From Liolophura sinensis (taxonomy: Eukaryota; Mollusca; Polyplacophora; Chitonida; Chitonidae): 64,000 nucleotides of DNA. The stretch lies in assembly GCF_032854445.1 (NCBI RefSeq), contig NC_088300.1, positions 70,530,984 through 70,594,983 of the forward strand, read 5' to 3'. This document shows positions 1 through 55,451 of this stretch, one piece after another. The notes under the pieces are model-generated. The model had not been told where the DNA came from and made no database searches. It saw only the letters and a list, made by a program, of their open reading frames with translations. How positions within the stretch are numbered: position 1 is the stretch's first letter; every line of letters starts with the position of its first letter. Both the position numbers and the translations under genes were made by a program.

Positions 1-95
1 AACATGTCAGTATATCGACTGAATTTGACTTTATGACGATATTAGTATGCACCTTACAGTTTTAGATATTCACCAAGGAGCATAGTACATGTGGT

Positions 96-241
96 GTCAG
101 TTGACAGGTTCTATACATGTACCTGTCAGTTGACAGGTTCCATACATGTACATGTCAGTTGACAGGTTCCACACACTGACATGTATGAGTCAGTTGACAG
201 GCTCTATACATGTACATATACGTGTCAGTTGACAGGTTCAA
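96..241. repeat. short minisatellite, about 29-35 bp unit, 5 copies
   Basis: The core GTCAGTTGACAGGTTC recurs at about 96, 125, 154, 188 and 224, separated by variable TACATGTA-rich spacers. The spacer length changes between copies (29 to 35 bp), so this is an imperfect array. It lies in the presumed second intron of the MFSD10-like gene. Confidence 0.85.
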
Positions 242-283
242 TAGATAACAAATATTTATTTGAAAAGCTTCGTTTTAATTTGA

Positions 284-1072
284 GTATCACATTTTCTATG
301 CCATACCATTGTGAGTACATTTAGAAAGAGCATTATACCAGTATCACACCTTCTATACCATACTATTGTGAGTACATTCAGAAAGAATGTTACACCAGTA
401 TCACAATTTCTATACCATACCATTATGAGTACACTCAGAAAGAGCATTATACCAGTATCACACCTTCTATACCATAGTACTGTGAGTACATTCAGAAAGA
501 ATGTTACACCAGTATCACACTTTCTATACCATACCATTGTGAGTACATTCAGAAAGAGCATTATACCAGTATCACACCTTCTATACCATACTACTGTGAG
601 TACATTCAGAAAGAATGTTACACCAGTATCACACTTTCTATACCATACCATTGTGAGTACACTCAGAAAGAGCATTATACCAGTATCACACCTTCTATAC
701 CATAGTACTGTCAGTACATTCAGAAAGAATGTTACACCAGTATCACACTTTCTATACCATACCACTGTGAGTACATTCAGAAAAAGTGTTATACCAGTAT
801 CACATTTTCTATATCATACCATTGTGAGTACATTAAGAAAGAGCATTATACCAGTATCACACCTTCTATACCATACTACTGTGAGTACATTCAGAAAGAA
901 TGTTACACCAGTATCACACTTTCTATACCATACCATTGTGAGTACATTCAGAAAAAGTGTTATGCCAGTATCATATTTTCTATACCATACCATTGTGAGT
1001 ACATTCAAAAAGAGTGTTACACCAGTATCACATTTTCTATACCATACCATAGTGAATACATTCAGACAAAGT
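284..1072. repeat. 57-bp minisatellite with alternating A/B units (114-bp higher-order period)
   Basis: There are about 13 full units of 57 bp plus a partial one. Each contains GTGAGTACATTCAGAAA followed by ACCAGTATCACA and TTCTATACCATA. Two unit types alternate for most of the array: type A carries AGAGCATTATACC and CACACCTTC, type B carries AGAATGTTACACC and CACACTTTC. The repeat period is therefore often 114 bp. A third variant (AAAAGTGTTA) appears near the right end. Because 57 is a multiple of 3, the array is open in several frames on both strands (for example + 311-1267). The translation is a pure repeat and is not considered a gene. Confidence 0.95.
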
Positions 1073-1134
1073 GTTTTGACTTTAACTTCAATGGTTAACC
1101 AAATACCTGGCCTAATGCAAGAGTTTTGCAATTA

Positions 1135-1288
1135 TGCTCCCTCTCCAGGAGTACATGGAAAGGTCTGTCAGCAACTTGAGAATGGTCATGGGTTTGCTCC
1201 GAGCTCTGCCCAGTTTCCTAATTCTGGTCGCTGTTGTATAAGTGAAATATTCTCGAGCACGGGGTAAAACACGAATCAAATAAATAAA
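1135..1288 (+). mobile_element. SINE (family 1), 5'-truncated copy
   Basis: The sense strand is plus. The copy has the body of the dominant SINE of this window: GTCTGTCAGCAACTTGAG, then GGGTTTGCTCCGAGCTCTGC, GTATAAGTGAAATATTCT, and the tail AATCAAATAAATAAAT. The tRNA-like head is missing. It is clearly diverged from copies such as 26454-26703. It sits in the intron left of MFSD10 coding exon 2. Confidence 0.85.
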
Positions 1289-1598
1289 TCAGTTATGCTG
1301 CTATGACAATATTTCAAAATAACATACATGTACACATAATGAATTTGTATATAAACACGTTTTATATATCAAAAGCTGAACTATTAGATATGTCGTTCAT
1401 GATATAAAGAGCCATCAACAAAACAATCACATCTGTACACTATGCCAAACTCCATTATACATAAATAAATAACATGTTTAAATTCACAACCATAAACAAT
1501 ATCTACATGATTAAGATTACATTTTACATAACACATACATGCAGAGACAAAGCTTGAGGATGGTTTAATAGTACAGGTAAAAAATTCAGATGTCTTAC

Positions 1599-3651: not shown

Positions 3652-5322
3652 GATCCACAGTTAGCACTCTGGATATAGATGCCTGTCTTGGTACGTGCAG
3701 ACCCACTCTTGGCACTCAGGATATAGATGCCTGTCTTGGTACGTGCAGACCCACTCTTGGCACTCAGGATATAGATGCCTGTATTGGTAAGCCCTACATG
3801 TACACTCACGCTTAGCAGTCAGGATATAGATGCCTGTCTTGGTACATATTCACCCACGCTTGGCGTTAGGGATATAGATGCCCCTCTTGGTACCTGTACA
3901 CCCAAGCTTGGCGTTCGGGATATAGATGCCTGTCTTGGTACATATTCACCCACGCTTGGCGTTAGGGATATAGATGCCCCCCCCCCCCCTTGGTACATGT
4001 ACACCCACGCTTGGCGTTAGGGATATAGATGCCCCCCCCCCCCCCCTTGGTACATGTACACCCACGCTTGGCGTTAGGGATATAGATGCCCCCCCTCCCC
4101 CCTTGGTACATGTACACCCACGCTTGGCGTTAGGGATATAGATGCCCCTCTTGGTACCTGTACACCCAAGCTTGGCGTTCGGGATATAGATGCCTGTCTT
4201 GGTACGTGTATGCCCACGCTTGGCGTTCGTGATATAGATGCCTGTCTTGGTACATGTACCCCCACGCTTAGCACTCAAGATATAGATGCCAATCTTGTTA
4301 CATGTACACCTACGTTTGTCACCGAGGATACAGATGACAATCTTGGTACATGCACACCCAAGCTTGGCATTCAGGATATAGATGCCTGTCTTGGTACATG
4401 CACACCCAAGCTTGGCACTCAGGATATAGATGCCTGTCTTGGTACATGCACACCCACGCTTGGCACTCAGGATATAGATGCCGGTCTTGGTACATGTACA
4501 CCCACGCTTGGGACCGAGGATACAGATGACAATCTTGGTACATGTCCATCTACGCTTAGCACTCAGGATATAGATGCCTGTCTTGGTACATGTCCATCTA
4601 CGTTTGGCACTCAGGATATGGATGCCTGTCTTGGTACATGTACAACCACGCATCCTTATTGACACCTGCTCTGATACGTGTACACCCACGCTTGGCGCTC
4701 ACGATATGGATACCAATCTTGGAACGTGTACATCCATGCTCCGCGCTCAGGATATAGACGTCTGTCTTGGTACATGAACATCCATGCTTCGCGCTCATGA
4801 TGCAGGTGTCTCTCTTGGTGCATGTACATCCACGCTATATTGGAGCTCAAGATATATGAATGCAACTACTGATACATGTACGTGCACACTTAGCGTTCAA
4901 GATATAATTGCATGTCGTTGTACAGGTACACCCACGCTTAGCGTTCAATACATAGATGCAAATCTTAGTACATGTACATCCACATCTGGCGCTCAGGATA
5001 TAGACGCCTGTCTTGGTAGATGTACATCCAAACTTCGCGCTAAAGATATACATACAAATTTTTGGTACATGTACATTCGGGTCTTGGACCTCAGGCTATA
5101 CAAATGCCAATCTTGTTTCATCTACATTTACGCCTGACGTTCAAGATACAGATACCAGTCTTTGTACATACGCAGCCACTGTTCGTGTTAAAAATATAGA
5201 TGCATGTCTTGGTACATGTACACCCACGGTTCTTTCTAAGGAAATAGATGTTAATGTTGGCACATGTACACCCACGCTTGGCGCTCAGGGTACAGATGCT
5301 TGTCTCGGTACTGGTACACCAT
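3652..5322. repeat. 48-bp minisatellite, about 34 units, with inserted poly-C tracts
   Basis: The unit is about 48 bp and contains GATATAGATGCCTGTCTTGG, then TACATGTACACCCACGCTTG and a variable gcactcag/gcgttcgg junction. Units diverge towards the right end (4860-5320). In three consecutive units the CCTGTCTT segment is replaced by C runs: 13 C at 3977-3989, 15 C at 4032-4046, and 7+6 C at 4089-4102. The frame-neutral unit length gives repetitive ORFs on both strands across 3627-5324. These are rejected as genes. Confidence 0.95.
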
Positions 5323-19078: not shown

Positions 19079-21379
19079 CTTGCTGAAGGAAACCACTAAA
19101 ATTTAGCTGTAAGTTTGCACTGAAGCTCCTCATTGACTTAATGTTAAAATATAGGATGTCAAAAATTTAACCAACCAACAGACTACGTGATGGACCAATA
19201 CACCGACCGACAGACAGAGCCTTTTAATAACTGTCTTTCTATATATGCCTCATAGCCTTTTAACTGCTTGGAATAGCTAAAACTTAGTATTTTCATGGAA
19301 TTCCAAAGTTGCCTGTCTGGTCAGGTGTCTAACTGTTCATTATTAACGTATAAATACGCTCTAACTAATTGGACTAGAGTGGTCGTGTGTATTTTAAGAA
19401 CATTCCTTTGGTACCTATGTAAAATTGCTCTGGGTTGTATTTTCTCTAGAATTCTCAACGTTCGAATCTGAAAGGGCTCCGCTGCAGTAAGTATTGTAAG
19501 ACTGCATAGTTTCAGTAAATGATTTAAAGAGTGACAATGAATTAACATATCTTAGAATGGAGGGGTGTAGCCAAATCGACCATGTCATTGCTTTCTAGTG
19601 CAACATTTTTAATGGTTCAAAGTGAATGACTGAGGCTCAACGCCACACTGGCGCTTATTTCAGCCGAAGTGTGGCAAGGTTCAAACTGAGTGAGACCTAA
19701 CCACGACAGATATGGGAACATTATTGAAATATAAAGAAACAAAGAAAATGGGTATTTTATTCATTCTTTTATGATTAGTTCAATAATTGATTAATTTCAG
19801 ACTATTAGGCAATTGATTAACCTGAAAAACATCATACCAAATCTCAGACATATGTATTAATCTGTTAAATATAGGTATTCACAATGAATCAAGAACAATG
19901 GCTGTAAATAAATATAGTTTCTTTTTTTCTGAACCAGTTAGCAAACGATCATATATATTGTATGAGGCTTTATTCATACAGTTGTGTGCATCGGGTAAGC
20001 TTCTTGAGAAAGCTAACTGGGCATTTTCCGGATAACATCGAGGCATAAACGTGTCCTAGTTTTTACTCACTTAAACCATGTCATTCGTTTTGGGCCAGAA
20101 CTTCCTGAATAGGCCACCCCAACCCGTTCCCACGCCCCTCCTCCCTAAATCATAGTTCACGAGCAAATGTACTGAAATCTTAACTAAATGCAAAATTTCA
20201 GTCAGCCATAGTCAAACCTGTTCCTCCAGTCTGCGTTAGCTTTAGCCCCCTGGCCGATAGGCCAGTGATCATCCTTCTCTCTTAAATATGTTACGAAATT
20301 AAACCACGTTTACCACCTTTGTTGTAGGTTTCCGCATATTGTTCATATGAAATGTACATCCAGAGGTGTTATTTTAAAAACCTATAGTGTACAAGTTTAT
20401 CTCAACCCCCACTGACAAAAACAACAACTTGGTTTGATCAGCTAAGCTCTTGGAAAAATAAAAAACAGTGACGTACATGAGGAGATATGTTAAAAGGCAT
20501 ATCTATTACAAGTGGTGTTTACTTCGTGAAAGTTCCGTGTATGCAAATCACAGGAGCACAAAGGTGTGATCATGAGCCAGGGCCAGTTGGCCGTCACTTT
20601 GGCTACCGAGTAAAATTTACGTGTATACATTTACAGGTGTCTTTCTTGTGAGCCCTGCCATCAGCCCCAATAATAGACCTACCGCCACTCACAGTATGTG
20701 CGTGTTGACAGACTAACCTGCGCCAGATATGCTGTTTTGTGTAAAGCGTTATTGGGAATCAGCGGTGCATGACGGAACAGCCACAGCGAATGGCATTATC
20801 ATAATAACCATCGTCTACAGATATTCCCCTTTTTATGTATGTACGTGTATACGACAAACTAGGATTAACGCGCTTCTCGTTCCTTGTCCCGTTTCTTACG
20901 AAACAGGTTTTTCTTTTCGACATTAGATGAACCCTGTTTTCCAATGTTTATCTTTGGTTATGCGTATGAGCTTGAATTGTTATCGCTTTTTCATACATGC
21001 ACTGAATTCATTGTTTAGCAGAAGCTATTATGTTTCATTTGTTAAAGACGACTTTATATTAACCAGTAAAACAATATATGTTTTACTTGGCTTATACAGG
21101 GTGAATTCACATGGCGTTAACGCTTACTATTAGCTTCGTTTCTTCAATATAAGAAATGTTTGCAAATAAAAGCGATCCAACACCAAACACTGTAATATTT
21201 GTTATCTGGTCAGAAGTGTTTGGTTATGTACAACCACTGGAGATTCTAAACAGTAATTATTTTATTCATATTCACATCGCTCGTGCTCTCAGCACCATGC
21301 CTGAAGCGGAAGTAAGTAATTGGGAAATAAGCGTACGTTGCATGGGAAACCCACGTTTTTATTCGAAACAAAGTTAAAG
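19079..21379. other. 2.3 kb non-coding stretch
   Basis: No gene, RNA or array was recognised. Short frames (for example + 20729-20926) have no recognisable content. Confidence 0.4.
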
Positions 21380-21546
21380 CAGCACCAGCAAGGTGCAAGA
21401 TGGGAACAAAACGGTGCAAGCAGGACAAGCAAGGTGCAACATGGGAACAAAACAGTCCAAGAAGGACAAGCAAGGTGCAACATGGGAACAAAACAGTCCA
21501 AGCAGGACAAGAAGAGTTCGACATGGGAACAAAAAAGTGCAAGCAT
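21380..21546. repeat. 41-bp minisatellite, about 4 units
   Basis: The unit contains GTGCAACATGGGAACAAAAC and AGTCCAAGCAGGACAAGCAA. It aligns with the 39-bp unit that starts about 110 bp to the right, so the two arrays share an ancestor. Overlapping open frames here on both strands are repeat artefacts. Confidence 0.9.
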
Positions 21547-21659
21547 GTTGAAAGCACAACAATACAAACAATTATCAATCCGCCACTTTGGCAAAAGAGA
21601 CCAGCCATGACAAGCGTAGAGCTACACGCTCAAAGCACTATGCAACTAGGACAAACAAC

Positions 21660-21942
21660 GTGCCACATTGGCAAAAGTGTGCAAGCAAGACACATGATGT
21701 GCCACAATGGCAAAAGTGTGCAAGCAAGACACATGATGTCCCACAATGGCATAAGTGTGCAAGCAAGACACATGATGTGCTACATTGGCAGAAGCGTGCA
21801 AACAAGGCACATGGTGTGCCACATTGGCAAAGGTCTGCAAGCAAGACACATGATGTGCCATATTGGCAAAGGCGTGCAAGCAAGACACATGATGTGCCAC
21901 ATGGACAAAGGTGTGCAAGCAAGACACATGATGCGCCACATT
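21660..21942. repeat. 39-bp minisatellite, about 7 units
   Basis: The unit contains GTGCCACATTGGCAAAAGTG and TGCAAGCAAGACACATGAT. Because 39 is a multiple of 3, at least four frames are open across it. These translations are low-complexity and rejected as genes. Confidence 0.93.
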
Positions 21943-21979
21943 GATTTTCTTAATTCTTGTCGTGGAACTGAGAACATAT

Positions 21980-24285
21980 ACTTTATTTGTCCACTCCCTT
22001 GTCATTGATGTAATTGTTTAATTGAGACAAAATCTACTTTGATTGTCCATTTTCTTGAGATGGATGTAATCAATGAATTGACACAAGCATTTGGTTTGAT
22101 TGTCAGATTCCTTCTCATGGATATAATCGTTGAATTACGACAAGTACATCCACTTTGATTGTGGGGGATGTAATCATTAAATTGGGACAATCATTTATTT
22201 TAACTACCAAATGCCTTGTCATGAATGTAATTCTTCAATTAAGACATAATTTACTTTCCACTGATTGTGCATTTGCTTGACATGGATGTTATCAATGAGT
22301 TGAGACAATCATTTGCTTTGATTGTCAAACTCCTTGTAATTGATGTAATCTTTAAATTAGAACAAGCATCCACGTTGATTGTCCTGGTCCTCTTCGTGGA
22401 TTGCATTGGACAAGTTCATCTACTTTGATCGTCCAAGTCCTTGTCATGATGTAATCATTGGATTGGGACAAGCACATCTACTTTGATTGCCCAAGTCCTT
22501 GTCATGATGTAATCATTGAATTGGGACAAGCACATCTACTTTAATTGTCCATTTCCTTGTCATGATGTAATCATTGGATCTGGACAAGCACATCTACTTT
22601 GATTGTCCATTTCCTCGTCATAATGTAATCATTGGATTGGGACAAGCACATCTACTTTGATTGTCCAAGTCTTTGTCATGATGTAATCATTGGATTGGAA
22701 TAAGCACATCTACTTTGATTGTCCATTTCCTTGTCATAATGTAATCATTGGATTTGGACAAGCACATCTACTTTGATTGTCCATTTCCTCGTCATAATGT
22801 AATCATTGGATCTGGACAAGCACATCTACTTTGATTGTCCATTTCCTCGTCATAATGTAATCATTGGATTTGGACAAGCACATCTACTTTGATTGTCCAT
22901 TTCCTTGTCATAATGTAATCATTGGATCTGGACAAGCACATCTACTTTGATTGTCCAAGTCTTTGTCATGATGTAATCATTGGATTGGGACAAGCACATC
23001 TACTTTGATTGTCCAAGTCCTTGTCATGATGTAATCATTGGATTTGGACAAGCACATCTACTTTGATTGTCCAAGTCTTTGTCATGATGTAATCATTAGA
23101 TGGGGACAAGCACATCTACTTTGATTGTCCAAGTCCTTGTCATGATGTAATCATTGGATTGGAACAAGCTCATCTACTTTGATTGTCCAAGTCCTTGTCA
23201 TGATGTAATCATTGGATTGAGGCAAGCACATCTACTTTGATTGTCCAAGTCCTTGTCATGATGTAATCATTAGATGGGGACAAGCACATCTACTTTGATT
23301 GTCCAAGTCCTTGTCATGATGTAATCATTGGATTGGAACAAGCTCATCTACTTTGATTGCCCATTTCCTTGTCATAATGTAATCATTGGATTTGGACAAG
23401 CACATCTACTTTGATCGTCCAAGTCTTTGTCATAATGTAATCATTGGATTTGGACAAGCACATCTACTTTGATTGTCCATTTCCTTGTCATGATGTAATC
23501 ATTGGTTTGGGACAAGCACATCTACTTTGATTGTCCAAGTCCTTGTCATGATGTAATCATTGGTTTGGGACAAGCACATCTACTTTGATCGTCCAAGTCT
23601 TTGTCATAATGTAATCATTGGATTGGGACAAGCACATCTACTTTGATTGTCCAAGTCCTTGTCATGATGTAATCATTGGATTGGAATAAGCACATCTACT
23701 TTGATTGTCCAAGTCCTTGTCATGATGTAATCATTGGATTGGGACAAGCACATCTACTTTGATTGTCCAAGTCCTTGTCATGATGTAATCATTGAATTGG
23801 GACAAGCACATCTACTTTGATTGTCCATTTCCTTGTCATGATGTAATCATTGGATTTGGACAAGCACATCCACTTTGATCGTCCAAGTCTTTGTCATGAT
23901 GTAATCATTGGATTGGGACAAGCACATCTACTTTGATTGTCCAAGTCCTTGTCATGATGTAATCATTGGATTGGGACAAGCACATCTACTTTGATTGTCC
24001 AAGTCCTTGTCATGATGTAATCATTGGATTGGAATAAGCACATCTACTTTGATTGCCCAAGTCCTTGTCATGATGTAATCATTGGACTGGAACAGGCATA
24101 TTTACTTTGATTGTCCAAGTCCACGTCATGATGTAATCGTTGGATTGGGACAAGCACATCTACTTTGATTGTCCAAGTCTTTGCCATGATGTAATCATTG
24201 TATTGGGACAAGCACATCTACTTTGATTGTCCAAGGCCTTGTCTTGGACAAGGATTTACTTTGATTTCAAGTTCTCCTCATGAAC
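21980..24285. repeat. 58-bp minisatellite, about 39 units (2.3 kb)
   Basis: The consensus contains GTCCAAGTCCTTGTCATGAT, GTAATCATTGGATTGGGACA and AGCACATCTACTTTGATT. The left 400 bp are strongly diverged with indels; from about 22430 rightwards units are nearly identical, and the last units decay again. Variants (CCATTTCC versus CCAAGTCC, ATAATG versus ATGATG, GGATTTGG versus GGATTGGG) recur in blocks. One block containing CATTAGATGGGGACAAG and GGATTGGAACAAGCTC is repeated at about 23095 and 23269, a spacing of three units. Confidence 0.97.
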
Positions 24286-25240: not shown

Positions 25241-25329
25241 ATGACTCCAAAAATTAGAGCACCTTATATTCCAGGATTACCTGAAAATAATGAGTTACTC
25301 AAGCAGTCCGCCACCTACGCCGCCTACAG
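25241..25329 (+). CDS. pLGIC exon 1 (5' UTR plus first 13 codons)
   Basis: The exon follows the acceptor TTTTCACAG (AG at 25239-25240) and ends at the donor GTAAAC (25330). The in-frame ATG at 25290 encodes MSYSSSPPPTPPT. An out-of-frame ATG at 25241 opens an overlapping frame, and the in-frame TGA at 25242 closes the coding frame upstream. Confidence 0.75.
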
Positions 25330-28300
25330 GTAAACTCACTGTCTTCTGTTATAAAAGAACAAATAAAAAACCCACTAATCTATCAGTCATAGATACTACT
25401 TAGCTTAGTTTTTGAAAATTTTGGTACAATTGCCCGAAAGAGCATGTAGGCATGAATATAATTTGCATTGCTTAATTCCCTGAACGACAAATCAAAATGT
25501 ATGTGTTGTTTCTCCTGCCTATATCACTTCTTCAGTCCTTCGGGATCACTGAAATGTGTTGACTGCTTTCTAATTTCTTACTTTATCTTAGTTCTTTAGT
25601 GGTTTGTTTTACAATCTGTTTTGTAAATTGGTTTTGCGATTTTTTGACCTGGATCGTTCATTATAGTTGATTATGAGTCTCAGCTAAGGCTCACAGATTT
25701 TGGAAATATGCCATTCTGATGTAAATTTTCTGTTTGACCCCACAGTAAAGGAGCGTAAGCTAAGTCTGCTGGTTGAACCGGTGTCGCATAAGGACTACGA
25801 CAGACTGAACTCTGAAAACTCCAACGACTTACAGACCATCTTATCCAGAAACAATGATTTGATCAAAAGAAACGCCAAGGCCTTCAGAAATCTGACTGAA
25901 GCTTTGAAATCTGGAGACGATGATACCACCACGTCCAGAGCCTCATTCCTCTCTGGCGTCAGGAGACAGTTTAAGGTAGGAGGGTCATACGGGTATTAGC
26001 GTCTTTGTGAAATTCCTCGCGGGCGCCCCCGTGTGAAGTTTCAATAGGGAAGTAGGTAAACGAACACAGACACCTGAAGATATCAATTATCATTGGCCTC
26101 TAATTTAAGCGTTTTTTGTTGTTGTTGTTGTGTAACACCATAATCCCTTTTCCATGTATACGATGGTGGTTAGTTTTGTGCTTGAGGAATCCTGTGTGCC
26201 TGAGGTAAACCACCCACCCACGTTTGACAAGTTATGGATGAACCGACCGACTTTTGACGTACAGATAAGCATTCCATATTTGTAAACAAGACAAATGGTC
26301 TTCGACGAATGCAAGGCTGTAAAACGGGCCTAACAGGCCTAACAGCACCATGGATCACTTATTGTTTGCATCGAAAGCAGCGCGAACAATGAAAGCGGTG
26401 AAATTTGGAAATTCCTTGCCCATGTCTGAGGTTGAATTGGCCTAGCGGTTGGATTTATTTATTTATTTGATTGGTGATTTACCCCGTACTCAAGAATATT
26501 TCACTTATACGAAGGCGGCCAGAATTATTCTGGGAGGAAAGCCGGCAGAGCTCGGGGAAACCCACGACCATCCGCAGGTTGCTGAACGACCTTCCCACGC
26601 ACGACCGGAGAGCAAGCCAGCATGAAATGAACTTGAACTCACAGCGACCGCATTGGTGGAAGGCTCCTGGGTCACTGCGCCGTGCTGGCGTACTTAACCG
26701 CTCGGCCTAGTGGTTGGAGTTGCGCACCTTATTACAGAACCATGTACAGCTGAAACATATCGAACGCTGAGAGACACCACCTGGTTAAACTCAGATGATC
26801 AATGGATAAATTTTATTGCTGCAATACTGCCGATATGGCGTTTAGCCACAATCATTCATTCATTAATTCAGTTGATTACTTAATAGGTGGGATTATTACG
26901 ATGAGTACAACAACTGTAGTCAAAGCTGAATAGACGAAGCTTGTGTCGCCGGTTGAATTTCAAGCAGTGAAGTCAGTGTTGTGTTTGGTTTGCAGGTACC
27001 CACAGAAGTGAGGTGTTCAATATTACAGATCCTGAATCTGAACATCCCCGAGCAACAGTTTGAAGCGGAGATACTGTTGGAGGCTCGCTGGAGGGATGCC
27101 GCTTTCCGGGGACTACGGGACACAGTTAGTACAATCATCAGTTACTGTGTAAAATCCAGTCGCCTTGAGACATACTGGATATAACGTCATTATCGGAAAA
27201 GTTAAGGAGCTGAAGTAACAGTTTCGTAAAAAGCCCCTGGATATCAGTATGTTCTCAATGTCTGCAGTGGACCAAAAAATAGCGACCAAGGATTAACTTT
27301 CATTAACTTTCTGATAAATTTTATTTATTTAATTGATTGATGTTTCACGCCGCTCTAAAGAAAATTTCACTTATACGACGGCGGCCGGCATTATGATGGG
27401 AGGAAAGCGGGCAGAGCTCGGGGGAATCCCACGGCGATCCACAGGTTGCTGGAAGACCTTTCCACGTACGACCGGAGAGGAAGCCATCATGAGGGAACTC
27501 AGTGTGAGAGGCTTGTTGGTCAATGTGTTGAGCTGGCACGCCAGCCAAATCTGCCACGGAGGCCACCGCTTCTAATTAATGCCTGTGGAATGCGCCAAAG
27601 TTTTCAGATAGCTTAAGTACAATTTTTACGTTTTAAAAATATATTTACCTATTTCTTACAAGACTTTGCTGTGAATCTCCGATCAGAGTAAAATGCAATC
27701 AACAGGAACCAATTTCTTAAAAACATTTAAAAGTTAGGCCATGGAGATATATATGAACCTCCATATATACCTCCATGGGTAGACTAACCCTAGATTCAGC
27801 GAATGTATTATATTAGTTAAGAATAAACATGTATATAAACAACTAAAGTTGGTTGCCTGTTTCTGTTACAGGAGTTTGCCACAGTGGATTTTGAACGATA
27901 CTGGAACCCGAAGTTAATCATTGCTAACGTCAAAGGGGATTTGGACTATGATTCGGTGTTCCAGTTAATCATTCCATCCCACGTGGTGGCAGAGGACCCC
28001 ACGGTGGTCATGCTGAGGAAATGTAAAGGAAGATTCCACCATAAGTTTAACCTGCAGCAGTACCCTTTTGACACACAGGTATAATGCATATATATAGGAA
28101 TATAGAAGTAATGAGAAACGACTGCTGGATTTTGGTACCATGGCTGACCTGTTTTATGCAATCTTATGAATGCCCATTTCAAGCGTCTGTACATCTACTT
28201 TGTATATCCTTCATCAGTGTGCCGCGTTTTTTTTTTCTGTGTTTTTATGTTTGTTTTTCATTGGACGACTTTTCATGCCTAAGTAATTGAGCCAAAGCTG

Positions 28301-31300
28301 TGTAGTATATTGTTCATTGCTGTCTGTTGGTAAGCGCGCTAGCACAGCGCAATGACACAGGAGCCCCTCACCAATGCGGTCGCTGTGAGCTCAAGTCCAG
28401 CTCATGCTGACTTCCTCTCTGGTCGTACCTGGAGAAAGTCTGCCAGCAACCTGCGTGTTTTTAATCTCAATCCATGTTATTAGAAATTACATTCTCCACT
28501 CTAAGTTAAGAGCTGTATATATGTTTATGACCACCGCAGTTTAGAATTAAGCGTTTCTTAGAACAAACTGAGATACATGGTAGTACACCTGCTCACAATA
28601 GCCGTAACCTTTTCCTGGGTTTCCTGGGTTTAACCCTGCTACTTAAAAATTCTATTTATCCTAAGTATAGCCTGGATTTCTCACATCAGCCGGCAATGAG
28701 AAACGACTCTCAAACTAAACTGTTAATGTTTCATACACTCTCTATAAGATTAATTGCAACACATTGTTTAGGGTAAGGGAATTAACAGAAGATTTATTTG
28801 TTTATTTTTGCAAGAGGTCATCAGTTTATCGATAACACTGTATATCTTGACATGTAATATCCTTTACCACTTACGTAAATGTATCCCTATGAAATCCTTA
28901 GCCAATTTCTTACATATCATAGCTTGGATGGACGTGTGAATTAAACATTATTATGGTATTATTTTTGCAGGAACTAAGTATACGAGTGACGTCAGCCCGA
29001 TCCACCAATGAGATTGACCTGCGGGAGAGCAAGGTTCGGACGAGTATGATCCATCTGGAGTCTGTACAGATCAGAGGGGACTGGCACGTCTACAGTCACA
29101 TCGATGTCACCAAGGATTGTGTCTCAGAACTGTCACGAAGGATTGTCACCAAACCAGTCTTAACTTTCCGCTGCTATGTGTCACGGAGATTAGGTTATCT
29201 GTGGTGGAATGTCTTCTTGGAAGTGGTACGTTTCTGCATTTGTGACAGGTTTCGCTCGCCATTATATATCCTAACTTTCTGACACAAGACGATAGATACG
29301 ATACCCAAAATATATTTTATATTTACCAAATCTGACATTCAGCATTTTGTGAAGCTCCATTTCGTGTCACTCTTTCGAGCTTGACACAAATTTGTACACG
29401 TACATTTATAAACGAATTTTTGGTCCGAAGCTCGTAAAGCCATTCATTGACGTATCACCTGTCATGACAGGATTTGGTGAGCTTTTGTCAAAGTACTCTT
29501 TTGTAAAGATCGGCAATTCCAAATATTGAATCTGATCCTTATGCTTTTCAGTTTATGATCGGGCTTATGTCATTCCTAACAATGGCCATGCCTCCCGATT
29601 CGTCCGAACGCCTTCTTGCCGACTTGCTATTGGTGATAACATTACTGGTGTTTCGCTACAAGTCTGCTCAGACAAGTGAAAAGGTCTCCTTCTTATCCTA
29701 CCTGGTAAGTGTTAAAATCTGAGCTATAAAGGTCTGCTAAATTGGAACAATTCATTTCATTAATACGTTTCAAGATGGCTTATGGGGAAAGAACAGTAGT
29801 TTCTATAATGTTTAACACATCACTGACTCAAACAGGCTGGCTATTCTGGTTGTAAACCATCGGCTGGTTTATTGTCTGCCTGTACACTGTGAGAGCACAT
29901 GGTCAGAGCATGACGTAATGATGGTGACGTCGTGTTACAGTCATAGGTGCGACATTACATCTCTCCATTTCTTTGAATTAAAACTCTCTTGAGTACACAT
30001 CAATAGGAGACTACCTTCGGAGTACATTCAAATAATCATGACATCTGATAACAGTCAGTATTATGCTTAACAGAGGAAATTCAGTGAAACAGAACTAAAG
30101 TATTTGAGGTACTTGTATGTTTCTCACCTGCTGTTTCTGTTGTTTTCTTAAGCGTGATCGACAAACCGACGAAAAGTGATTATTTTTCCACAGTAGTGTT
30201 ACAAGTCTTCCCTTTTGCGGGCATGAGGAAGGCTGTAACCGCAGTAACAACATAGTGATTCACCTTCAACTTTATTAGTTGACAGTCCACCATTACGAGA
30301 TTGTGAACGATTACGATTTAAAGACTTACCACGGGCGTGACGGCGACGCGTGACTGACGATTTGAACTATCATTGTTCGACGAATAGTGGACAGCAGCTG
30401 CACGGCCTGTAGCTCACTGAAATCGAGGGCACGACCAGCATCGAGTAGTTCTCTCAGGGTCAAGTTTCACGTAAGGCACGACGTCTTAGTCGTTGTGAAG
30501 TACACGAAAGGACGATTTGTGACGCGATCTCCTTGTCAACGTCATTGAAATCACAGCGTTTTGATAACTGTCTCAAACGAGTGTGGTAAGAGTCGATGGA
30601 TTCTGTGTCACCCTCTTTCGCTTGGAGAAAATTATAGATTTCATAGGCAGTGTTCACATGAGGGGTGAAGTACGTAGGCTACTTAATTTCTCTGTCGCTG
30701 TTATAATCATCTGCCTCACCAGTGTCTGTCAACGTGTCGAATATCTCATCTACATCCGGGCCAGCGTAGTGTAGAAGTAATGCACGCTTGCGTGACTGAT
30801 TATCAATGTCCAGGGCTACCATCAGCCGTTCAAAACATGAGATCTATTTAGCCCAGCGAGGACCTATGTTCCCGTCTGCATGGAAGTCAAAACTTGGGAA
30901 AGATGGGAGCCTCTTAGCCATTGTCACATATATTTCATTAAAGTTCATTGATTATTACTGCTACACACATTTGAAATCACTGGAGACTGTGACAGGATTG
31001 GCAAAATTCAGCAGACGATAGACTGCGATAACAGGCAGGGACAGTGACGCATTATGCAGTGCTCAGTTGTCGTTATTGACGACAGACAGTTCAACCTCCG
31101 CCTCTCGATAATCGAGCGGGAGTAGTGGAAAAACCCTCACAAAGTCTTTTGGCACAATATAATGTTTAACACATCAATGACTCAAACAGACTGGCTATTC
31201 TGGTTGTAAAACATCGGTTGTTTTATTGTCTGCTTGCGTCTGCCTGTACTCTGTGAGAGCGCATGGTCAGAGCATGACGTAATGACGGTGACGTCGTGTT

Positions 31301-33346
31301 ACAGTCATAAATGCGATATTACAGTTTCGATTATTCATTAATGCTTACATCACCATAATATACACAACCTGAAATGCACGTATATCTGGTAAAGGGGAGG
31401 TAAACGTCATCGAACTTAAGGAATGAAAAAGTCATTGAAGAACTCCTTGAGCTAAGACCCCAAAGCTCATTTGCACGTACAGATTAAAATGGTGCTTGAA
31501 CAATGCCCAGCGGTCCTATAACCATGCATTGTAGCTAGAACCTGACGATTGGGAAACCAATCTGGGTGATACATGGCAAACTGAAGGTTTCAAACTTCTG
31601 AGCTCTTCACGATAAAACCGTGAGGACCAAAACCACACAGAGCCGTTAGCCTGCAGGCTTGCGCGCTTCCATCCACGACAATCAAAACCTCAAACCTAAA
31701 AGAAACAGACTAAATTGTTAAAACAACTGTTAAAATTCGTGCAATATGAGTGGCAATACCTTGTTGTAAATTCCTTTATCTTTAAATGGAGTAGGCTATA
31801 CAAGGAAGAATATGAGAGAGCTATACACAAATTTATATTCGAATAAATTTGTATAATGTGTAGTCACTATTCATCTCATCCGCTTGTTTCACTTTACAGG
31901 ATATTTACACCATTGCCACGTTAATGTACCTTCTGTTGGTGTGTCTAATGAACGCGGTCACAGCAGTGGTTGTCAGGGAACATGGCGGCAGCATGGACAT
32001 GTCACCAGACGGTGCTGTCATCGTCGTCATGGCTTGCCTTTACTTCGGTTTCCATGGTATCATCTTTGGTTACATCTTCATTACGGTAAGTTTGACCAGA
32101 TTAGTGGTTGTAATAAATGTATAAACTAGCTTGGACATGCATGGTGCGTCATCTGACCGGGCTTTAAACTGCCCGGACGATTTGTACCGATATTCACGAA
32201 ACAAACCGCTACAATACTAACATTTGGCCAGGTAGTGCCTTCGTATATGTTCTTCAGTCTGTTCTCTACAAAGTACACTATACAATATTTATAGAAAATG
32301 CAACGAATCTTGTCCGGTTGTAAAAATTGAATATGGACTGTTGCGTGACTTTTTTGACGGATGCACCTTCACTGTTGTTATCCTAATTGCAATCATTTGC
32401 ACGAATGAGTCCAGAGACATCTGTCCGTCCTTACCGAAATTTCAATGAACGAACGTAACAGTTAAGCATCTATCTCCTTAATGAATGTGTATATTGGGGC
32501 TCTGATTAAATCACTGAAAACTACGACGGGGAAATATGGCTCACTCACGTCTTCTGCATATTTTGCTCCCATTCTTTAAAACAGTAGATAGAAAGTGTTA
32601 AGAGATATGACGCCGAATACGCTATATTTGTTAAGCGATCTCTTCTCCCTTACATTATTCAAGAGTACAGAAAGTGCTCAGTCTTTCATGGGAAACAATT
32701 TTTTTTCGCTTTGCTATTCAGGTGTACAGAACTCGAATTGTTGTTTCCAGGAAAGAAGAGGAATATAGGGTTAGTAATAGTTTTAAAAATGATAAGTGAT
32801 GTAAAATCCATGGAGATTTGAGTGTAACAGCTAAACTCATCTTGGTCTCCTAGACCAGTTCCAGACATAAATTCACACAAAACAACCAAAATAACAAAAA
32901 TCAGTGAGATCGATTTCAAAACAGACCTCGTACAGTGTAGATTTTATCTGTGTATGTAATATGTTATGCAACAGCTATGCTGAATTCAACTCGTGTTAAA
33001 CACGGGCTTACAATGTAGATCATTCAGTAATGTGATCTAGGACTATCTTGAGTGAACAATGTATAATAGTAATTGTTTCTTGACATTTGTGCCAGTATAT
33101 ATTCTCACCCAACGATGAATGCCTGTACATTTGAATTTATTGTTCAAAATTTGAATTTCTCAAAAAAACAGGATAGCTAAAAGCCCTTTCAAATAATGAT
33201 TTGATAATTTCAAATACTCTTCTTTGTTTCTTCAGTCTCGATTAGCGCAGCAGTTTTCCGCCGGTTCACCTGACATATCCTTTGGCCAGTGGGAACACGG
33301 GATCAACGACTCTTTCACCAATCACGACACGTCAATGTTATACTGA
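25241..33346 (+). CDS. pentameric ligand-gated ion channel subunit lacking the Cys-loop cysteines (complete, 8 coding exons)
   Basis: Coding exons: 25290-25329, 25746-25975, 26996-27124, 27872-28078, 28971-29225, 29552-29704, 31900-32085, 33236-33346. All borders are GT..AG; the first intron is phase 1 and the rest phase 0. The product is 436 residues. Order: polar N-terminus (1-90), extracellular beta-sandwich (about 91-275; SILQILNLNI, YWNPKL, then the Pro-loop YPFDTQ at 197-202), TM1 about 279-303, TM2 about 306-325, TM3 starting at LDIYTIATLMY, a loop of only about 13 residues, TM4 about 377-399, and a 37-residue tail. The two cysteines that normally bracket the loop around PFD are His and Leu here; the proline is kept. 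No vicinal Cys pair marks a nicotinic alpha subunit. Such proteins are plasma-membrane channels assembling as pentamers; the ligand cannot be inferred. ATG 25290 is preceded in frame by TGA at 25242. No signal peptide is visible, which is odd for this family. Confidence 0.9.
25746..25975 (+). CDS. pLGIC exon 2 (N-terminal hydrophilic region)
   Basis: The acceptor is CCCCACAG and the donor GTAGGA. It encodes residues 14-90, charged and Ser/Thr-rich with no hydrophobic segment, ending RRQFK. It may form an N-terminal helix ahead of the beta-sandwich. Confidence 0.88.
26000..26438. other. intron 2 sequence of the pLGIC gene
   Basis: No element was recognised in this part. It contains a short GTT-repeat at about 26117-26130 and the doublet AGGCCTAACAGGCCTAACAG near 26334. 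Confidence 0.4.
26454..26703 (-). mobile_element. SINE (family 1), near full-length, in pLGIC intron 2
   Basis: In minus orientation all parts are present: tail (TTATTTATTTGATTGG on plus), ACTCAAGAATATTTCACTTA, a GC-rich middle with CCGCAGGTTGCTG, and a tRNA-like head at the right with B-box-like GGACTTGAA-type sequence (plus: CTTGAACTCACAGCGACC). It is flanked by an apparent 15-bp direct repeat GGCCTAG(C/T)GGTTGGA at 26439-26453 and 26704-26718, which may be the target-site duplication although it resembles the head's own A box. Confidence 0.9.
26996..27124 (+). CDS. pLGIC exon 3 (first beta strands of ligand-binding domain)
   Basis: The acceptor is TTTGCAG and the donor GTTAGT. Residues 91-133 include VRCSILQILNLNI and EILLEARWRD, which match the beta1-beta2 pattern of the superfamily (V-x-x-x-I-L-Q-I-L and L-x-x-x-W-x-D). 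Confidence 0.92.
27319..27567 (-). mobile_element. SINE (family 1), near full-length, in pLGIC intron 3
   Basis: Minus orientation. From left to right on plus: TTTATTTATTTAATTGATTG tail, CACTTATACGACGGCGGCC, ACAGGTTGCTGG, CCACGTACGACCGGAGAGG, and the head end GCCACGGAGGCCACC. The head region is rearranged compared with 26454-26703. Confidence 0.9.
27739..27776. repeat. imperfect palindrome in pLGIC intron 3
   Basis: CATGGAGATATATATGAA is followed closely by TCCATATATACCTCCATG. The arms of 18 bp match with two mismatches and the loop is very short. Possible cruciform or hairpin; function unknown. Confidence 0.6.
27872..28078 (+). CDS. pLGIC exon 4 (W-N-P-K-L motif to Pro-loop)
   Basis: The acceptor is TCTGTTACAG and the donor GTATAA. 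Residues 134-202 contain YWNPKLIIANV, the usual W-x-P-x-L segment, and end in QQYPFDTQ. The first cysteine of the canonical Cys-loop is His at its position; another Cys lies further upstream (LRKCKG). Confidence 0.92.
28327..28458 (+). mobile_element. SINE (family 1), 5' half only, in pLGIC intron 4
   Basis: Plus orientation. A-box-like TGGTAAGCGCGCTAGC, then AATGCGGTCGCTGTGAGCTC (B box region), GTCCAGCTCATGCTGACTTC and GTCTGCCAGCAACCTGCG. It stops before the 3' body and tail. Confidence 0.88.
28971..29225 (+). CDS. pLGIC exon 5 (rest of extracellular domain to start of TM1)
   Basis: The acceptor is TTTTTGCAG and the donor GTACGT. Residues 203-287 start with ELSIRV, where the second canonical Cys would be Leu, include GDWHVY, and end in RRLGYLWWNVFLEV entering TM1. 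Confidence 0.92.
29552..29704 (+). CDS. pLGIC exon 6 (end of TM1 and TM2)
   Basis: The acceptor is GCTTTTCAG and the donor GTAAGT. Residues 288-338 carry LMSFLTMAMPP (TM1 end), then SSERLLADLLLVITLLVF and the M2-M3 linker KVSFLSYL. By hand alignment Glu-1' and Arg0' are kept, while 2', 6', 9' and 13' are Leu, Leu, Ile and Val. Confidence 0.92.
29799..29803. repeat. target-site duplication (GTTTC), left copy
   Basis: GTTTC immediately precedes the left LTR (29804). The identical 5 bp follow the right LTR at 31324-31328. Confidence 0.75.
29804..29959 (-). repeat. 3' LTR of the compact retroelement
   Basis: This matches 31158-31323 from TATAATGTTTAACACATCA to ATTACA (plus orientation), including CATGGTCAGAGCATGACGTA. 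Confidence 0.85.
30150..30921 (-). pseudogene. decayed gypsy-type gag
   Basis: An ATG at 30921 (minus) opens a frame interrupted by two in-frame TAG codons. An open block at 30657-30460 contains SIDSYHTRLRQLSKRCDF and then RLRRRALRE, which match the retrotransposon Gag (capsid-type) domain common in Ty3/gypsy elements of animals. Downstream, in a shifted frame, CYCGYSLPHAR resembles the beginning of a zinc-knuckle-like Cys motif. Stops and frameshifts make it non-functional. No protease, reverse transcriptase or integrase is present. Confidence 0.8.
31158..31323 (-). repeat. 5' LTR of the compact retroelement
   Basis: This is the right-hand copy in plus coordinates. It has about 10 extra bases (TGCTTGCGTC region near 31230) compared with the left copy. 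It is followed by the GTTTC duplication at 31324-31328. Confidence 0.85.
31324..31328. repeat. target-site duplication (GTTTC), right copy
   Basis: Identical to 29799-29803. Five bp is a usual length for Ty3/gypsy insertions. Confidence 0.75.
31329..31899. other. rest of pLGIC intron 6
   Basis: No gene was recognised. It includes a small perfect hairpin, ACAAATTTAT...ATAAATTTGT, near 31829-31854. Confidence 0.4.
31900..32085 (+). CDS. pLGIC exon 7 (TM3, short loop, TM4)
   Basis: The acceptor is CACTTTACAG and the donor GTAAGT. Residues 339-400 hold DIYTIATLMYLLLVCLMNA (TM3), a short loop with REHGGSMDMSPDG, and VMACLYFGFHGIIFGYIF (TM4). Typical animal subunits have 80 or more residues in the M3-M4 loop. 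Confidence 0.92.
32086..33235. other. pLGIC intron 7
   Basis: AT-rich sequence of about 1.15 kb with no recognised element. Confidence 0.5.
33236..33346 (+). CDS. pLGIC exon 8 (C-terminal tail and stop)
   Basis: The acceptor is TTGTTTCTTCAG. It encodes 36 polar residues ending HDTSMLY, then TGA at 33344-33346. After TM4 this tail would be extracellular. No consensus AATAAA signal was found close downstream. Confidence 0.8.
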   Translation, partial: SRLAQQFSAGSPDISFGQWEHGINDSFTNHDTSMLY

Positions 33347-34057: not shown

Positions 34058-34542
34058 ATTATTGTTTAAAAATTGCTGCTAGTCGAAAATTTTGCAATTT
34101 TTATTGTTGTTGTAAATCTTTTTTATACAGAATTTGCAGCGAAATATAACAATATATTTATTTTAATTTACATATATTATTGTATAGGGCCTGTCTTAAA
34201 CCGAAATGGCTGCAAGCATGGATGTGTTGTAAACAGCATGGCTGTTTGCATGAATGTTCCGGCATATTTTGATTTTTATATCACTGGAAGATTGGGTCAC
34301 AGAGAAATCGGAAAGAATGGAACTAACGGGACAAAAAGTTATTTATAAGTACAGACTGTAGGCCTATAGGCCTATAATCCACCTTTTATCTAGCATTTCA
34401 AAGTTGTTTGGATCACACTAAATGGAACTGAATTACAAGGAGTATTTTGAAAAACTGTCATAACAAATGATAAGACGATCCCAATATAGGCTAATCTTGT
34501 TTCTGTACTGGGATGATCATGCACATGCACATAAACGGTTGC

Positions 34543-35277
34543 TTACATTACCATAACAAACGATCCCTATATAGGCTACTCTTGTGTCGTTCACATTACC
34601 ATAACAAACGATCCCTACATAGGCTACTCTTGTGTTGTTACATTACCATAACAAACGATCCCTATATAGGCTACTCTTGTGTCATTCACATTACCATAAA
34701 AACGATCCCTATATAGGATACTCTTGTGTTGTTTACATTACCATAGCAAACGATCCCTACATAGGCTACTCTTGTGTTGTTACATTACTATAACAAACGA
34801 TCCCTATATAGGCTACTCTTGTGTTGTTTACATTACCATAACAAACGATCCCTATATAGGCTACTCTTGTGTTGTTTACATTACCATAGCAAACGATCCC
34901 TATATATGCTACTCTTGTGTTGTTACATGACCATAACAAACGATCCCTATATAGGCTACTCTTGTGTTGTTTACATTACCATAACAACCAATCCCTATAT
35001 AGGCTACTCTTGTGTTGTTTACATTACCATAACAAACGATCCCTACATAGGCTACTCTTGTGTTGTTTACATTACCATAACAAACGATCCCTATATAGGC
35101 TACTCTTGTGTTGTTACATTACCGTAACAAACGATCCCTATATAGGCTACTCTTGTGTTGTTTACACTACCATAACAAACGATCCCTATATAGGCTACTC
35201 TTGTGTTGTTTATATTACCATAACAAACGATCCCTATATAGGCTACTCTTGTGTTGTTTACATTACCATAACAATAG
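34543..35277. repeat. 48-bp minisatellite, about 15 units, between duplicated flanks
   Basis: The unit contains TTACATTACCATAACAAACG and ATCCCTATATAGGCTACTCT then TGTGTTGTT. Lengths alternate between 48 and 46 bp depending on TGTTGTTTACATT versus TGTTGTTACATT. The left flank (about 34495-34530, CTTGTTTCTGTACTGGGATG, ATCATGCACATG) and the right flank (about 35283-35315, CTTGTTATAGAACTGGAATG, ATCATGAACATG) also resemble each other, so the array sits inside a larger duplication. The open frames on plus here are artefacts. Confidence 0.95.
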
Positions 35278-35828
35278 AATATTCTTGTTATAGAACTGGA
35301 ATGATCATGAACATGACATCCTCTGGCGGTTGGTTATGGATCAAACGTTATAGAATTATTCATGTCTGTTCTCATATGTTCTGACGCGGTCCTCCCTCAG
35401 TGAAATGCTGTATTTAACTTTGTACAAATTTACATCACGTTGCAACCCCATATATAATTTATATCTACGGGTATAGTTACAGCAAAATATTAATTACTGT
35501 CTTGTACATATTCTGCTGGATAAAAAAAAATATTTGTTGAAAAAAAAAGTGCCCTGCAGTTTTGTTTTAAAAACAAAAGAACAGTTAAAAAGAATCGAGC
35601 TGATACGATACGCTTTAACGAGGGCCTATATCTGCGGGTCCCTTTTTTTGCCTTCATGAAGTCAAGCGATATGACACGCAGATGTCGTCGCCGATGAAAT
35701 GAGCAAAATTATATATTATAATTATATAGCCATAGCTTTATTACCCTTATAGTGCACTAACCGAGTTAAACGATACATGCACATGTAAATCTATACACTG
35801 TTGGTCGCATGCATGGCTTCTTCATTTG
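35278..35828. other. non-coding stretch, nothing recognised
   Basis: Only AT-rich unique sequence with short A runs (for example 35521-35548). Confidence 0.4.
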
Positions 35829-54639: not shown

Positions 54640-55050
54640 GGTCGAATTTGCTGGCGTTTGACAGCTGTCGGGGAAATTCGTGTACGTGAATCAGAACTCG
54701 CTACCTCCTCCCCCCAAAGAACGAAGTGGTTTCTGCTGCGCGGAAGGGGGCGCTACATTTAGTGACGTCAAGAGTAATGAATACTGGCTTGATGCTTAGC
54801 GAGGCGTTCACACAAAGCACAGAGCCATTCTCAGCGAAGAAGTACGATGACCTGAAACGAAGCATCAGCATTCGTGTTGTGGGCTGAGGTGACGGCCAGA
54901 GTTACTTGCGAAAACAGTAGTAATTAAGGCGTAATCATTGGAACTGTTCGATCGAGAGTTACTTTCAGTTTTCTCTCGAAATTAGGCCTTGCAGCTACCC
55001 CTTCTTGGTGTAAACGGCTCTTGGTTTGTTCATCAGCTGATCGCGGCGAG
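54640..55050 (+). promoter_or_regulatory. promoter and 5' UTR of the amine oxidase gene
   Basis: This is inferred from position and base composition. The 400 bp before ATG 55051 are richer in CG dinucleotides than the flanks, and there is no intervening acceptor that must be used. No TATA box was identified. Confidence 0.5.
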
Positions 55051-55246
55051 ATGAACGGAATGAAGACAGCCGTGAACCCTGCTAAGGGCGATCGAAGCTT
55101 GACTGAAAACCCACAAATTTTAATCATCGGGGCTGGTATCGCTGGTATTTCGTGTGGGGAATACCTTACACGAAATGGTCTTACGAATTTTAAAATTCTG
55201 GAAGCCACAGACCGCACGGGTGGTCGAATATGGAGCGTGGAGCTGG
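55051..55246 (+). CDS. flavin-containing amine oxidase (polyamine/spermine oxidase-like), first coding exon
   Basis: ATG 55051 opens 65 codons plus 1 nt to the donor G|GTAGGT (GT at 55247). The dinucleotide-binding fold is plain: PQILIIGAGIAGISCGEYL with the GxGxxG loop at residues 27-32, then the ribose-binding Glu51 in KILEATDRTGGRI with the GGR motif at 57-59. This start of the protein matches FAD-dependent amine oxidases of the polyamine oxidase (PAOX/SMOX) group. Those enzymes oxidise spermine, spermidine or their acetyl forms and release hydrogen peroxide. The exon joins in phase 1 to 63962. A second Met at codon 4 is an alternative start. The rest of the enzyme is outside the window, so the substrate class and peroxisomal or cytosolic location cannot be told. 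MAO- or LSD1-like relatives are less likely. Confidence 0.85.
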
Positions 55247-55451
55247 GTAGGTATTTTTAACCACTGCCTGGGTGCCTTCCCTTTTCTGTGTTGTTAATAC
55301 TACAACCGCCTGGGGACCAGCTGTACGGATAACATACATTCAGAAAATGGCTTTCAATCTTTCTGAATGAATGCATCCTGTCTGTTTAACCTTTTACATC
55401 AACCTGAAATAATAATGCTTGGGCTTACAGTTACACACTTGGCTCAATGAC

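What the first reader, a model, noticed from the sequence alone, without database searches (positions are those of the whole stretch)
25241..33346. A complete pLGIC subunit without the disulphide Cys-loop
The eight exons give a phase-consistent 436-residue subunit with beta-sandwich and four TM segments, but the two cysteines that define animal Cys-loop receptors are His and Leu around YPFDTQ. The proline of the loop is kept. Prokaryotic homologues also lack the disulphide (established), so this may belong to a poorly described animal lineage rather than a simple loss.
Basis: partly seen in the sequence, partly recalled or inferred. Interest (0 to 1): 0.75.

Follow-up and report, generated by a model that had tools for sequence, protein, structure and literature searches.

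The report
Disulphide-free animal ion-channel receptor gene
This animal gene encodes a subunit of a neurotransmitter-receptor-like channel that lacks the family's signature disulphide bond; it is one of six such genes in this genome, and their charge pattern hints, without proof, that the sensing domain may face the inside of the cell.

Summary
Confirmed and corrected. The gene is real, but I model nine exons and 452 residues: a 48-nt in-frame exon (32722-32769) was missed. The two Cys-loop cysteines are His and Leu around YPFDTQ.

It does not look like a simple loss. Five paralogues share the exon plan and lack both cysteines. The six form one clade (100/99) that groups with prokaryotic channels (92/83), outside 18 sampled Cys-loop stretches of this genome; their profile matches ELIC best among solved structures. 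Animal 'Cys-less' receptors, mostly lophotrochozoan, are in print (PMC4795631, PMC9874803), so the lineage is known but hardly studied.

New here: (1) the missed exon encodes a conserved basic stretch right after M4; with a short acidic M3-M4 turn, lysine and arginine lean to the normally extracellular side in 6 of 6 genes (12-16 against 1-5). (2) Neither gene whose start I could model has a signal peptide. The positive-inside rule then predicts a cytosolic ligand-binding domain, an inverted receptor: unproven, about 35%. (3) The window subunit lost the polar pore rings and M2-M3 proline of its paralogues, so it is probably accessory.

The parts
25241..25329 (+). exon A: acceptor at 25241, 5' untranslated part, start ATG at 25290 (MSYSSSPPPTPPT), donor after 25329
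   Evidence: in-frame TGA at 25242-25244 rules out an upstream start if this acceptor (11 pyrimidines of 12) is used; a weaker in-frame acceptor at 25275 (8 of 12) is not excluded
25746..25975 (+). exon B: N-terminal charged, helix-like extension (about 77 aa) without a hydrophobic signal peptide
   Evidence: codon score 16.2 (the codon table included this exon, so partly circular); similarity to paralogue P2's N-terminal exon, score reached by 17 of 5000 shuffles
26996..27124 (+). exon C: beta1-beta2 of the ligand-binding domain (VPTEVRCSILQ...)
   Evidence: matching exon in all five paralogues (129 nt in four, 138 nt in P4)
27872..28078 (+). exon D: LBD core to the Pro-loop (HKFNLQQYPFDTQ)
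28971..29225 (+). exon E: second Cys-loop position (Leu), beta7-beta10, conserved Trp, pre-M1 Arg, first half of M1; conserved Cys in beta10
   Evidence: W150, C180, R184 invariant in six genes
29552..29704 (+). exon F: rest of M1, M2 pore helix, M2-M3 loop; 2' L, 6' L, 9' I, 13' V; M2-M3 Pro lost
31900..32085 (+). exon G: M3, 13-aa acidic turn REHGGSMDMSPDG, M4
   Evidence: 48-nt phase-0 exon in 5 of 6 genes, 60 nt and looser in the sixth
33236..33346 (+). exon I: C-terminal tail and stop
   Evidence: not traced in the paralogues

Best explanation
The gene encodes a subunit of a Cys-less (Pro-loop) pentameric ligand-gated ion channel, one of six paralogues of an old clade that most likely descends from a disulphide-free ancestor rather than from a Cys-loop receptor that lost its cysteines. 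Shown here: the exon model, the shared exon plan, the missing cysteines, the tree position and the residue losses. Inferred: five subunits assemble round the M2 helices; a ligand at the interface of the beta-sandwiches moves the Pro-loop against the pre-M1 arginine and the M2-M3 loop and opens the pore. The paralogues have ELIC-like pores and could form channels. The window subunit, with aliphatic rings at 2', 6', 9' and 13' and no M2-M3 proline, probably does not conduct as a homopentamer and acts as an accessory or regulatory subunit. Orientation is left open: the charge pattern favours a cytosolic ligand-binding domain, ancestry favours an extracellular one.
For: Pfam LBD in 6 of 6 members. 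ELIC is the best solved relative of the six-gene profile. Exon borders and phase 0 from C to H shared by six. Clade of six 100/99, with prokaryotes 92/83. H/L at the Cys positions here, E/L in the five paralogues: the polar/hydrophobic pattern that PMC4795631 reports for bacterial loops. Pore Q/T/L/A at 2', 6', 9', 13' in P1, P3 and P5 equals ELIC; the window has L/L/I/V.
Against: No expression, assembly or current data. Searched alone, the window protein matches chimeric and eukaryotic receptor chains before ELIC. Pfam's transmembrane model matches 4 of 6 members at 0.01, not the window. The window row has a long branch (1.29 changes per column; ELIC 1.26, GlyR beta 1.33), so relaxed constraint is possible. 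The M1 proline is missing in 6 of 6. The tree has one Cys-loop row outside the nAChR-like group and six prokaryotes. Confidence lowered from 0.85 on re-reading.
Confidence: 0.8

Rival explanations
1. Inverted topology: the six proteins are inserted without a signal peptide, with the N-terminal ligand-binding domain and the C-terminus in the cytosol, so the channel senses a cytosolic ligand or sits in an internal membrane. This is a sub-case of the best explanation.
For: K+R on the normally cytosolic side 1-5, on the normally extracellular side 12-16, in 6 of 6 genes; five prokaryotic controls 4-6 against 3-6; 17 readable canonical M4 tails of the same genome carry 0-2 K+R, the six carry 6-9 in up to 20 residues. 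No signal peptide in the window or P2 models: best 11-aa hydropathy 0.55 and 1.7, five prokaryotic N-termini 2.8-3.5. P2's start exon has an in-frame stop upstream and only weak acceptors between.
Against: Prokaryotic relatives have signal peptides (passages of PMC549065). Basic pre-M1 and M2-M3 residues occur in ordinary receptors too, so the argument rests mainly on the M3-M4 turn and the tail. N-glycosylation sequons are not depleted: 4 seen, 4.6 expected. LBD cysteine counts are 4, 2, 3, 2, 2, 1, so some disulphides remain possible; the window has two near M1. The start exon is unknown in P1 and P3 and only guessed in P4 and P5.
Confidence: 0.35
2. Conventional topology with a basic latch: the basic stretch after M4 lies beside the acidic Pro-loop and stabilises it by salt bridges in place of the missing disulphide.
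For: Five paralogues have Pro-loop net charge -3 to -6 and tail net +5 to +8; the window has -1 and +2, so both charges are weakest in the same gene.
Against: One contrast among six genes; no structure model; a latch would not need the M3-M4 turn to lose its basic residues. Compatible with either orientation.
Confidence: 0.3
3. Secondary loss of the cysteines from a canonical Cys-loop receptor.
For: Such losses are reported in nematodes, one spider species and one tunicate (PMC4795631); the window protein alone matches eukaryotic chains before ELIC.
Against: Clade outside all 20 Cys-loop rows; five Cys-less paralogues; ELIC is the closest solved relative of the profile.
Confidence: 0.06
4. Decaying gene or pseudogene.
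For: Long branch, lost prolines, hydrophobic pore.
Against: Nine exons open, splice sites intact, no stop; D of YPFD and pre-M1 R kept.
Confidence: 0.06

Closest known systems
Cys-less Pro-loop receptors of invertebrates and protists (Jaiteh, Taly, Henin 2016, PMC4795631)
   Same: [F/Y]PxD loop without cysteines, beta9 aromatic and pre-M1 Arg, animal genome, grouping with disulphide-free channels
   Different: the window subunit lacks the M2-M3 proline; the basic post-M4 exon and the charge inversion are not mentioned in the abstract, sections 7-8 and passages that I read, and 'signal peptide' does not occur in the text
Schistosome Cys-less LGICs (Johnson et al. 2023, PMC9874803)
   Same: distinct Cys-less animal clade with several paralogues per genome
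   Different: all of theirs are reported to carry Glu just before M2 (called -2' there; numbering may differ by one from mine); here the residue before the Arg at 0' is E in the window, D in P2, N in P1, P3 and P5, A in P4
ELIC (Erwinia ligand-gated ion channel)
   Same: best solved relative of the profile; P5 has the same residues at 0', 2', 6', 9', 13', 16'
   Different: prokaryotic; M1 proline present; the profile match ends before M4, so the tails were not compared
nAChR/GABA-A/glycine Cys-loop receptors
   Same: fold and four-helix plan
   Different: the Cys pair stands in 18 of 18 sampled stretches of this genome (17 by pattern, L047 by eye); M4 tails hardly basic

Membership tests
Cys-less Pro-loop receptors | [F/Y]PxD loop with no flanking cysteines | tested here: met
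   HKFNLQQYPFDTQEL
Cys-less Pro-loop receptors | pre-M1 Arg and beta9 aromatic | tested here: met
   invariant W150 and R184 in six genes
Cys-less Pro-loop receptors | proline in M1 (77% of superfamily) and in the M2-M3 loop (88%); common, not defining | tested here: not met
   M1: absent in 6 of 6; M2-M3: absent in the window, present in 5 of 5 paralogues
Cys-less Pro-loop receptors | four transmembrane helices | tested here: met
   read by eye from the alignment; no predictor run; Pfam transmembrane model matches 4 of 6 members, not the window
Cys-less Pro-loop receptors | places with the published protist and lophotrochozoan clade | not testable with these tools
   no such sequences held; only separation from Cys-loop rows and grouping with prokaryotes shown
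Cys-loop receptors | two cysteines 13 residues apart | tested here: not met
   His and Leu
pLGIC with extracellular LBD | N-terminal signal peptide | tested here: inconclusive
   none in the window or P2 models; 12.7-kb upstream scan found none, but its positive control was uninformative
pLGIC with extracellular LBD | M3-M4 loop cytosolic by the positive-inside rule | tested here: not met
   0-2 K+R in the turn, 6-9 in up to 20 residues after M4, in 6 of 6 genes; segments cut by eye
pLGIC | pentamer and ligand-gated current | not testable with these tools
   needs experiment

The most novel reading that the evidence does not exclude
The six genes are 'inside-out' pentameric receptors: signal-peptide-free, with the ligand-binding domain, M2-M3 loop and basic C-tail in the cytosol, so an animal branch of the neurotransmitter-receptor superfamily would sense intracellular ligands; a reducing cytosol would also explain why no disulphide is needed.
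Probability: 0.35. Interest if true: 0.9.

Novelty: new variant of a known kind. Interest (0 to 1): 0.6.

Why it matters
The disulphide is usually taken as the defining mark of animal receptors of this superfamily. An animal clade with the disulphide-free plan bears on when the cysteines arose and how the fold manages without them. If the orientation is inverted, it would be a rare case of a homologous channel family flipped in the membrane, and it can be tested with one tagged protein.

Tried and rejected
Start at 25241: rejected, in-frame TGA at 25242. Secondary loss: disfavoured by the tree. Sequon depletion as a sign of cytosolic location: no signal, 4 against 4.6 expected. Signal-peptide exon scan of 12.7 kb upstream (hydropathy 2.0 or more, donor 5 of 7 or more): none; but the same kind of scan in four canonical genes (2.3-2.6 kb each) gave two low-scoring candidates in one and none in three, so the scan proves little. 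N-terminal exons: P1 and P3 not found; the best candidates of P4 and P5 lack a signal peptide but are unproven. The codon score used there was trained on the same exons that it was said to recognise, so its good scores for known exons are partly circular. Exon D of P5 was set 3 nt inside its likely acceptor; this drops one residue only. Relatives in viral contigs: none of 24 pattern matches confirmed. Plasmid collection: no match. Prokaryotic genomes: 6 of 38 pattern matches confirmed; L018 was left out of tree and controls because its longest frame was not the receptor frame, leaving five plus ELIC in the tree and five in the charge control. A search of five genomes of one group added only the genome already held. 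No Rfam match in the window. Alvinella receptors (PMC4801368) and diatom channels (PMC11085791) were looked at in passages only: the former have the disulphide, the latter say nothing of topology. Structure prediction was not run: the tool takes proteins that the DNA gives letter for letter, which a spliced protein is not.
Full report
Observation. The finding is real. Splice sites and phases were read from the window. A ninth exon, 32722-32769 (48 nt, phase 0), lies between M4 and the tail and was missed; with it the protein has 452 residues. It rests on conservation in the paralogues, not on RNA. Position 25241 is the acceptor of the first coding exon, not a start: the reading frame has a TGA at 25242-25244. 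A weaker in-frame acceptor at 25275 is not excluded. Pfam finds the neurotransmitter-gated LBD (2.7e-10). The Pro-loop is HKFNLQQYPFDTQEL: His and Leu at the cysteine positions, proline and aspartate kept.

Relatives in the same genome. The window lies in a 609-Mb genome in 632 contigs with many receptor exons (152 matches to the LBD model, with 150 of 234 candidates scored and the list cut off). Searches with exon E of the window, P2 and P4 and exons D+E of P3 led to six loci: the window gene, C6:40.81 Mb (P1), C6:25.64 Mb (P2), C4:9.18 Mb (P3), C11:29.51 Mb (P4) and C8:21.05 Mb (P5); the window query saw five of them, the other three queries all six. The models share phase-0 borders of exons C to H; exon lengths differ slightly and P4 has one extra intron in exon E. 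All six lack both cysteines: first position H (window) or E (five), second position L in six.

Placement. The profile of the six finds ELIC first among solved structures (8.4e-26); the window protein alone finds a GLIC-glycine receptor chimera, glycine receptor beta and nAChR beta chains before ELIC. In a tree of 32 rows (six Cys-less, six prokaryotic, 20 Cys-loop of which 18 are partial stretches of this genome) the six form a clade, 100/99, next to ELIC, 93/89, and with all prokaryotes, 92/83; the 18 stretches with nAChR beta form a clade, 100/99, and GlyR beta stands alone. The 18 stretches were chosen from the 152 LBD matches. The tree lacks other animals' and protists' Cys-less rows, and the window row has a long branch, so the deep placement is provisional. 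Jaiteh et al. (PMC4795631; abstract, sections 7 and 8 and searched passages read) have 69 Cys-less metazoan sequences and a eukaryotic Cys-less clade whose animal part is dominated by Lophotrochozoa. Johnson et al. (PMC9874803; parts 1 and 2 of 3 read) describe a Cys-less clade in schistosomes with relatives in annelids, molluscs, flatworms and deuterostomes, and cite planarian homologues expressed in mechanosensory neurons. So the lineage is known.

What is unusual. Exon H encodes a basic segment directly after M4: VYRTRIVVSRKEEEYR in the window, AFRRRRLMSKKDREYK, TSTRRRLMKRKDRRYK, PCKRRRLMNLKDREYR, ALRRRRTMNQKDSAYR in P1, P2, P3, P5, and a looser PGRKRREIHAKHKAHRQFLL in P4. The M3-M4 turn is 7-14 residues with 0-2 K+R and net charge -1 or -2. 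Counting pre-M1 (15 residues), M2-M3 and post-M4 (up to 20) against M1-M2 and M3-M4, K+R is 12-16 against 1-5 in 6 of 6. Five prokaryotic controls give 3-6 against 4-6. For canonical receptors, 18 of 106 transmembrane-model matches were fetched for their M4 end; one was unreadable, and 17 tails carry 0-2 K+R; these exons were not tied to their own LBD exons. In seven of them the last 20 residues before M4 hold 2-5 K+R, and in three genes the first 20 after M3 hold 3-5. Segments were cut by eye. The window model starts in exon A and P2 in exon B; neither has a signal-peptide-like stretch (best 11-residue hydropathy 0.55 and 1.7; five prokaryotic N-termini, trimmed by eye to a plausible Met, 2.8-3.5). 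In P2 an in-frame stop lies upstream and only weak acceptors lie between. Taken at face value, the positive-inside rule (recalled knowledge) puts the C-terminus in the cytosol and, with four helices, the ligand-binding domain too. Four paper searches for inverted or unusual topology of this superfamily listed no such report (listings only: 15 of 121, 15 of 893, 12 of 348 and 10 of 39 papers shown).

Limits of that reading. Basic residues before M1 and in M2-M3 are ordinary in this superfamily (2-4 and 0-3 in the controls). Sequons are neither depleted nor enriched (4 against 4.6). LBD cysteines number 4, 2, 3, 2, 2 and 1 in the window and P1-P5; only the one in beta10 is shared by six, P5 has no second, but the window's two near M1 and others could pair. 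The starts of P1 and P3 were not found, those of P4 and P5 are only candidates. The upstream signal-peptide scan was negative, but its positive control did not show that it works. A rival is that the basic tail pairs with the acidic Pro-loop: loop charge -3 to -6 and tail charge +5 to +8 in the paralogues, -1 and +2 in the window.

The window subunit itself. P1, P3 and P5 carry Q, T, L, A at 2', 6', 9', 13', as ELIC does; the window carries L, L, I, V, has Glu where ELIC has the M1 proline, and lacks the M2-M3 proline that its five paralogues keep (prime numbers set from the conserved Arg taken as 0'). I infer an accessory subunit that does not conduct alone.

Verdict. A genuine, intact-looking Cys-less pLGIC gene of a known but nearly unstudied animal clade; the anatomy of the whole clade raises a testable question about membrane orientation.

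Noticed in passing
window 29804-31323: The intron between exons F and G holds two direct repeats of about 156-166 nt, 92-93% alike, about 1.36 kb apart, flanking a gag-like fragment on the minus strand (Retrotrans_gag, E 0.015, below cut-off): probably a small LTR element.
   Followed up: partly
window 54928-55260 (+): Open frame matching flavin amine oxidoreductase (PF01593, 6.9e-9, above cut-off): part of an amine oxidase-like gene.
   Followed up: partly
window 1-1300, 3900-5200, 21200-22100, 34500-35400: Tandem arrays with periods of 57, 48, 39 and 41, and about 47-48 nt; those with periods 57, 48 and 39 hold long open frames, as expected for periods that are multiples of three.
   Followed up: no
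L001-L013 (five paralogue loci) and window exon E: One cysteine in beta10, about six residues before M1 as cut, is invariant in all six genes and has no possible partner in the P5 LBD: a lipid attachment site if cytosolic?.
   Followed up: no
G000, LBD model search: None of the six Cys-less loci is in the printed rows of the exon-wise LBD family search (the list was cut off), so this clade is easily overlooked by family searches on raw genomes.
   Followed up: no
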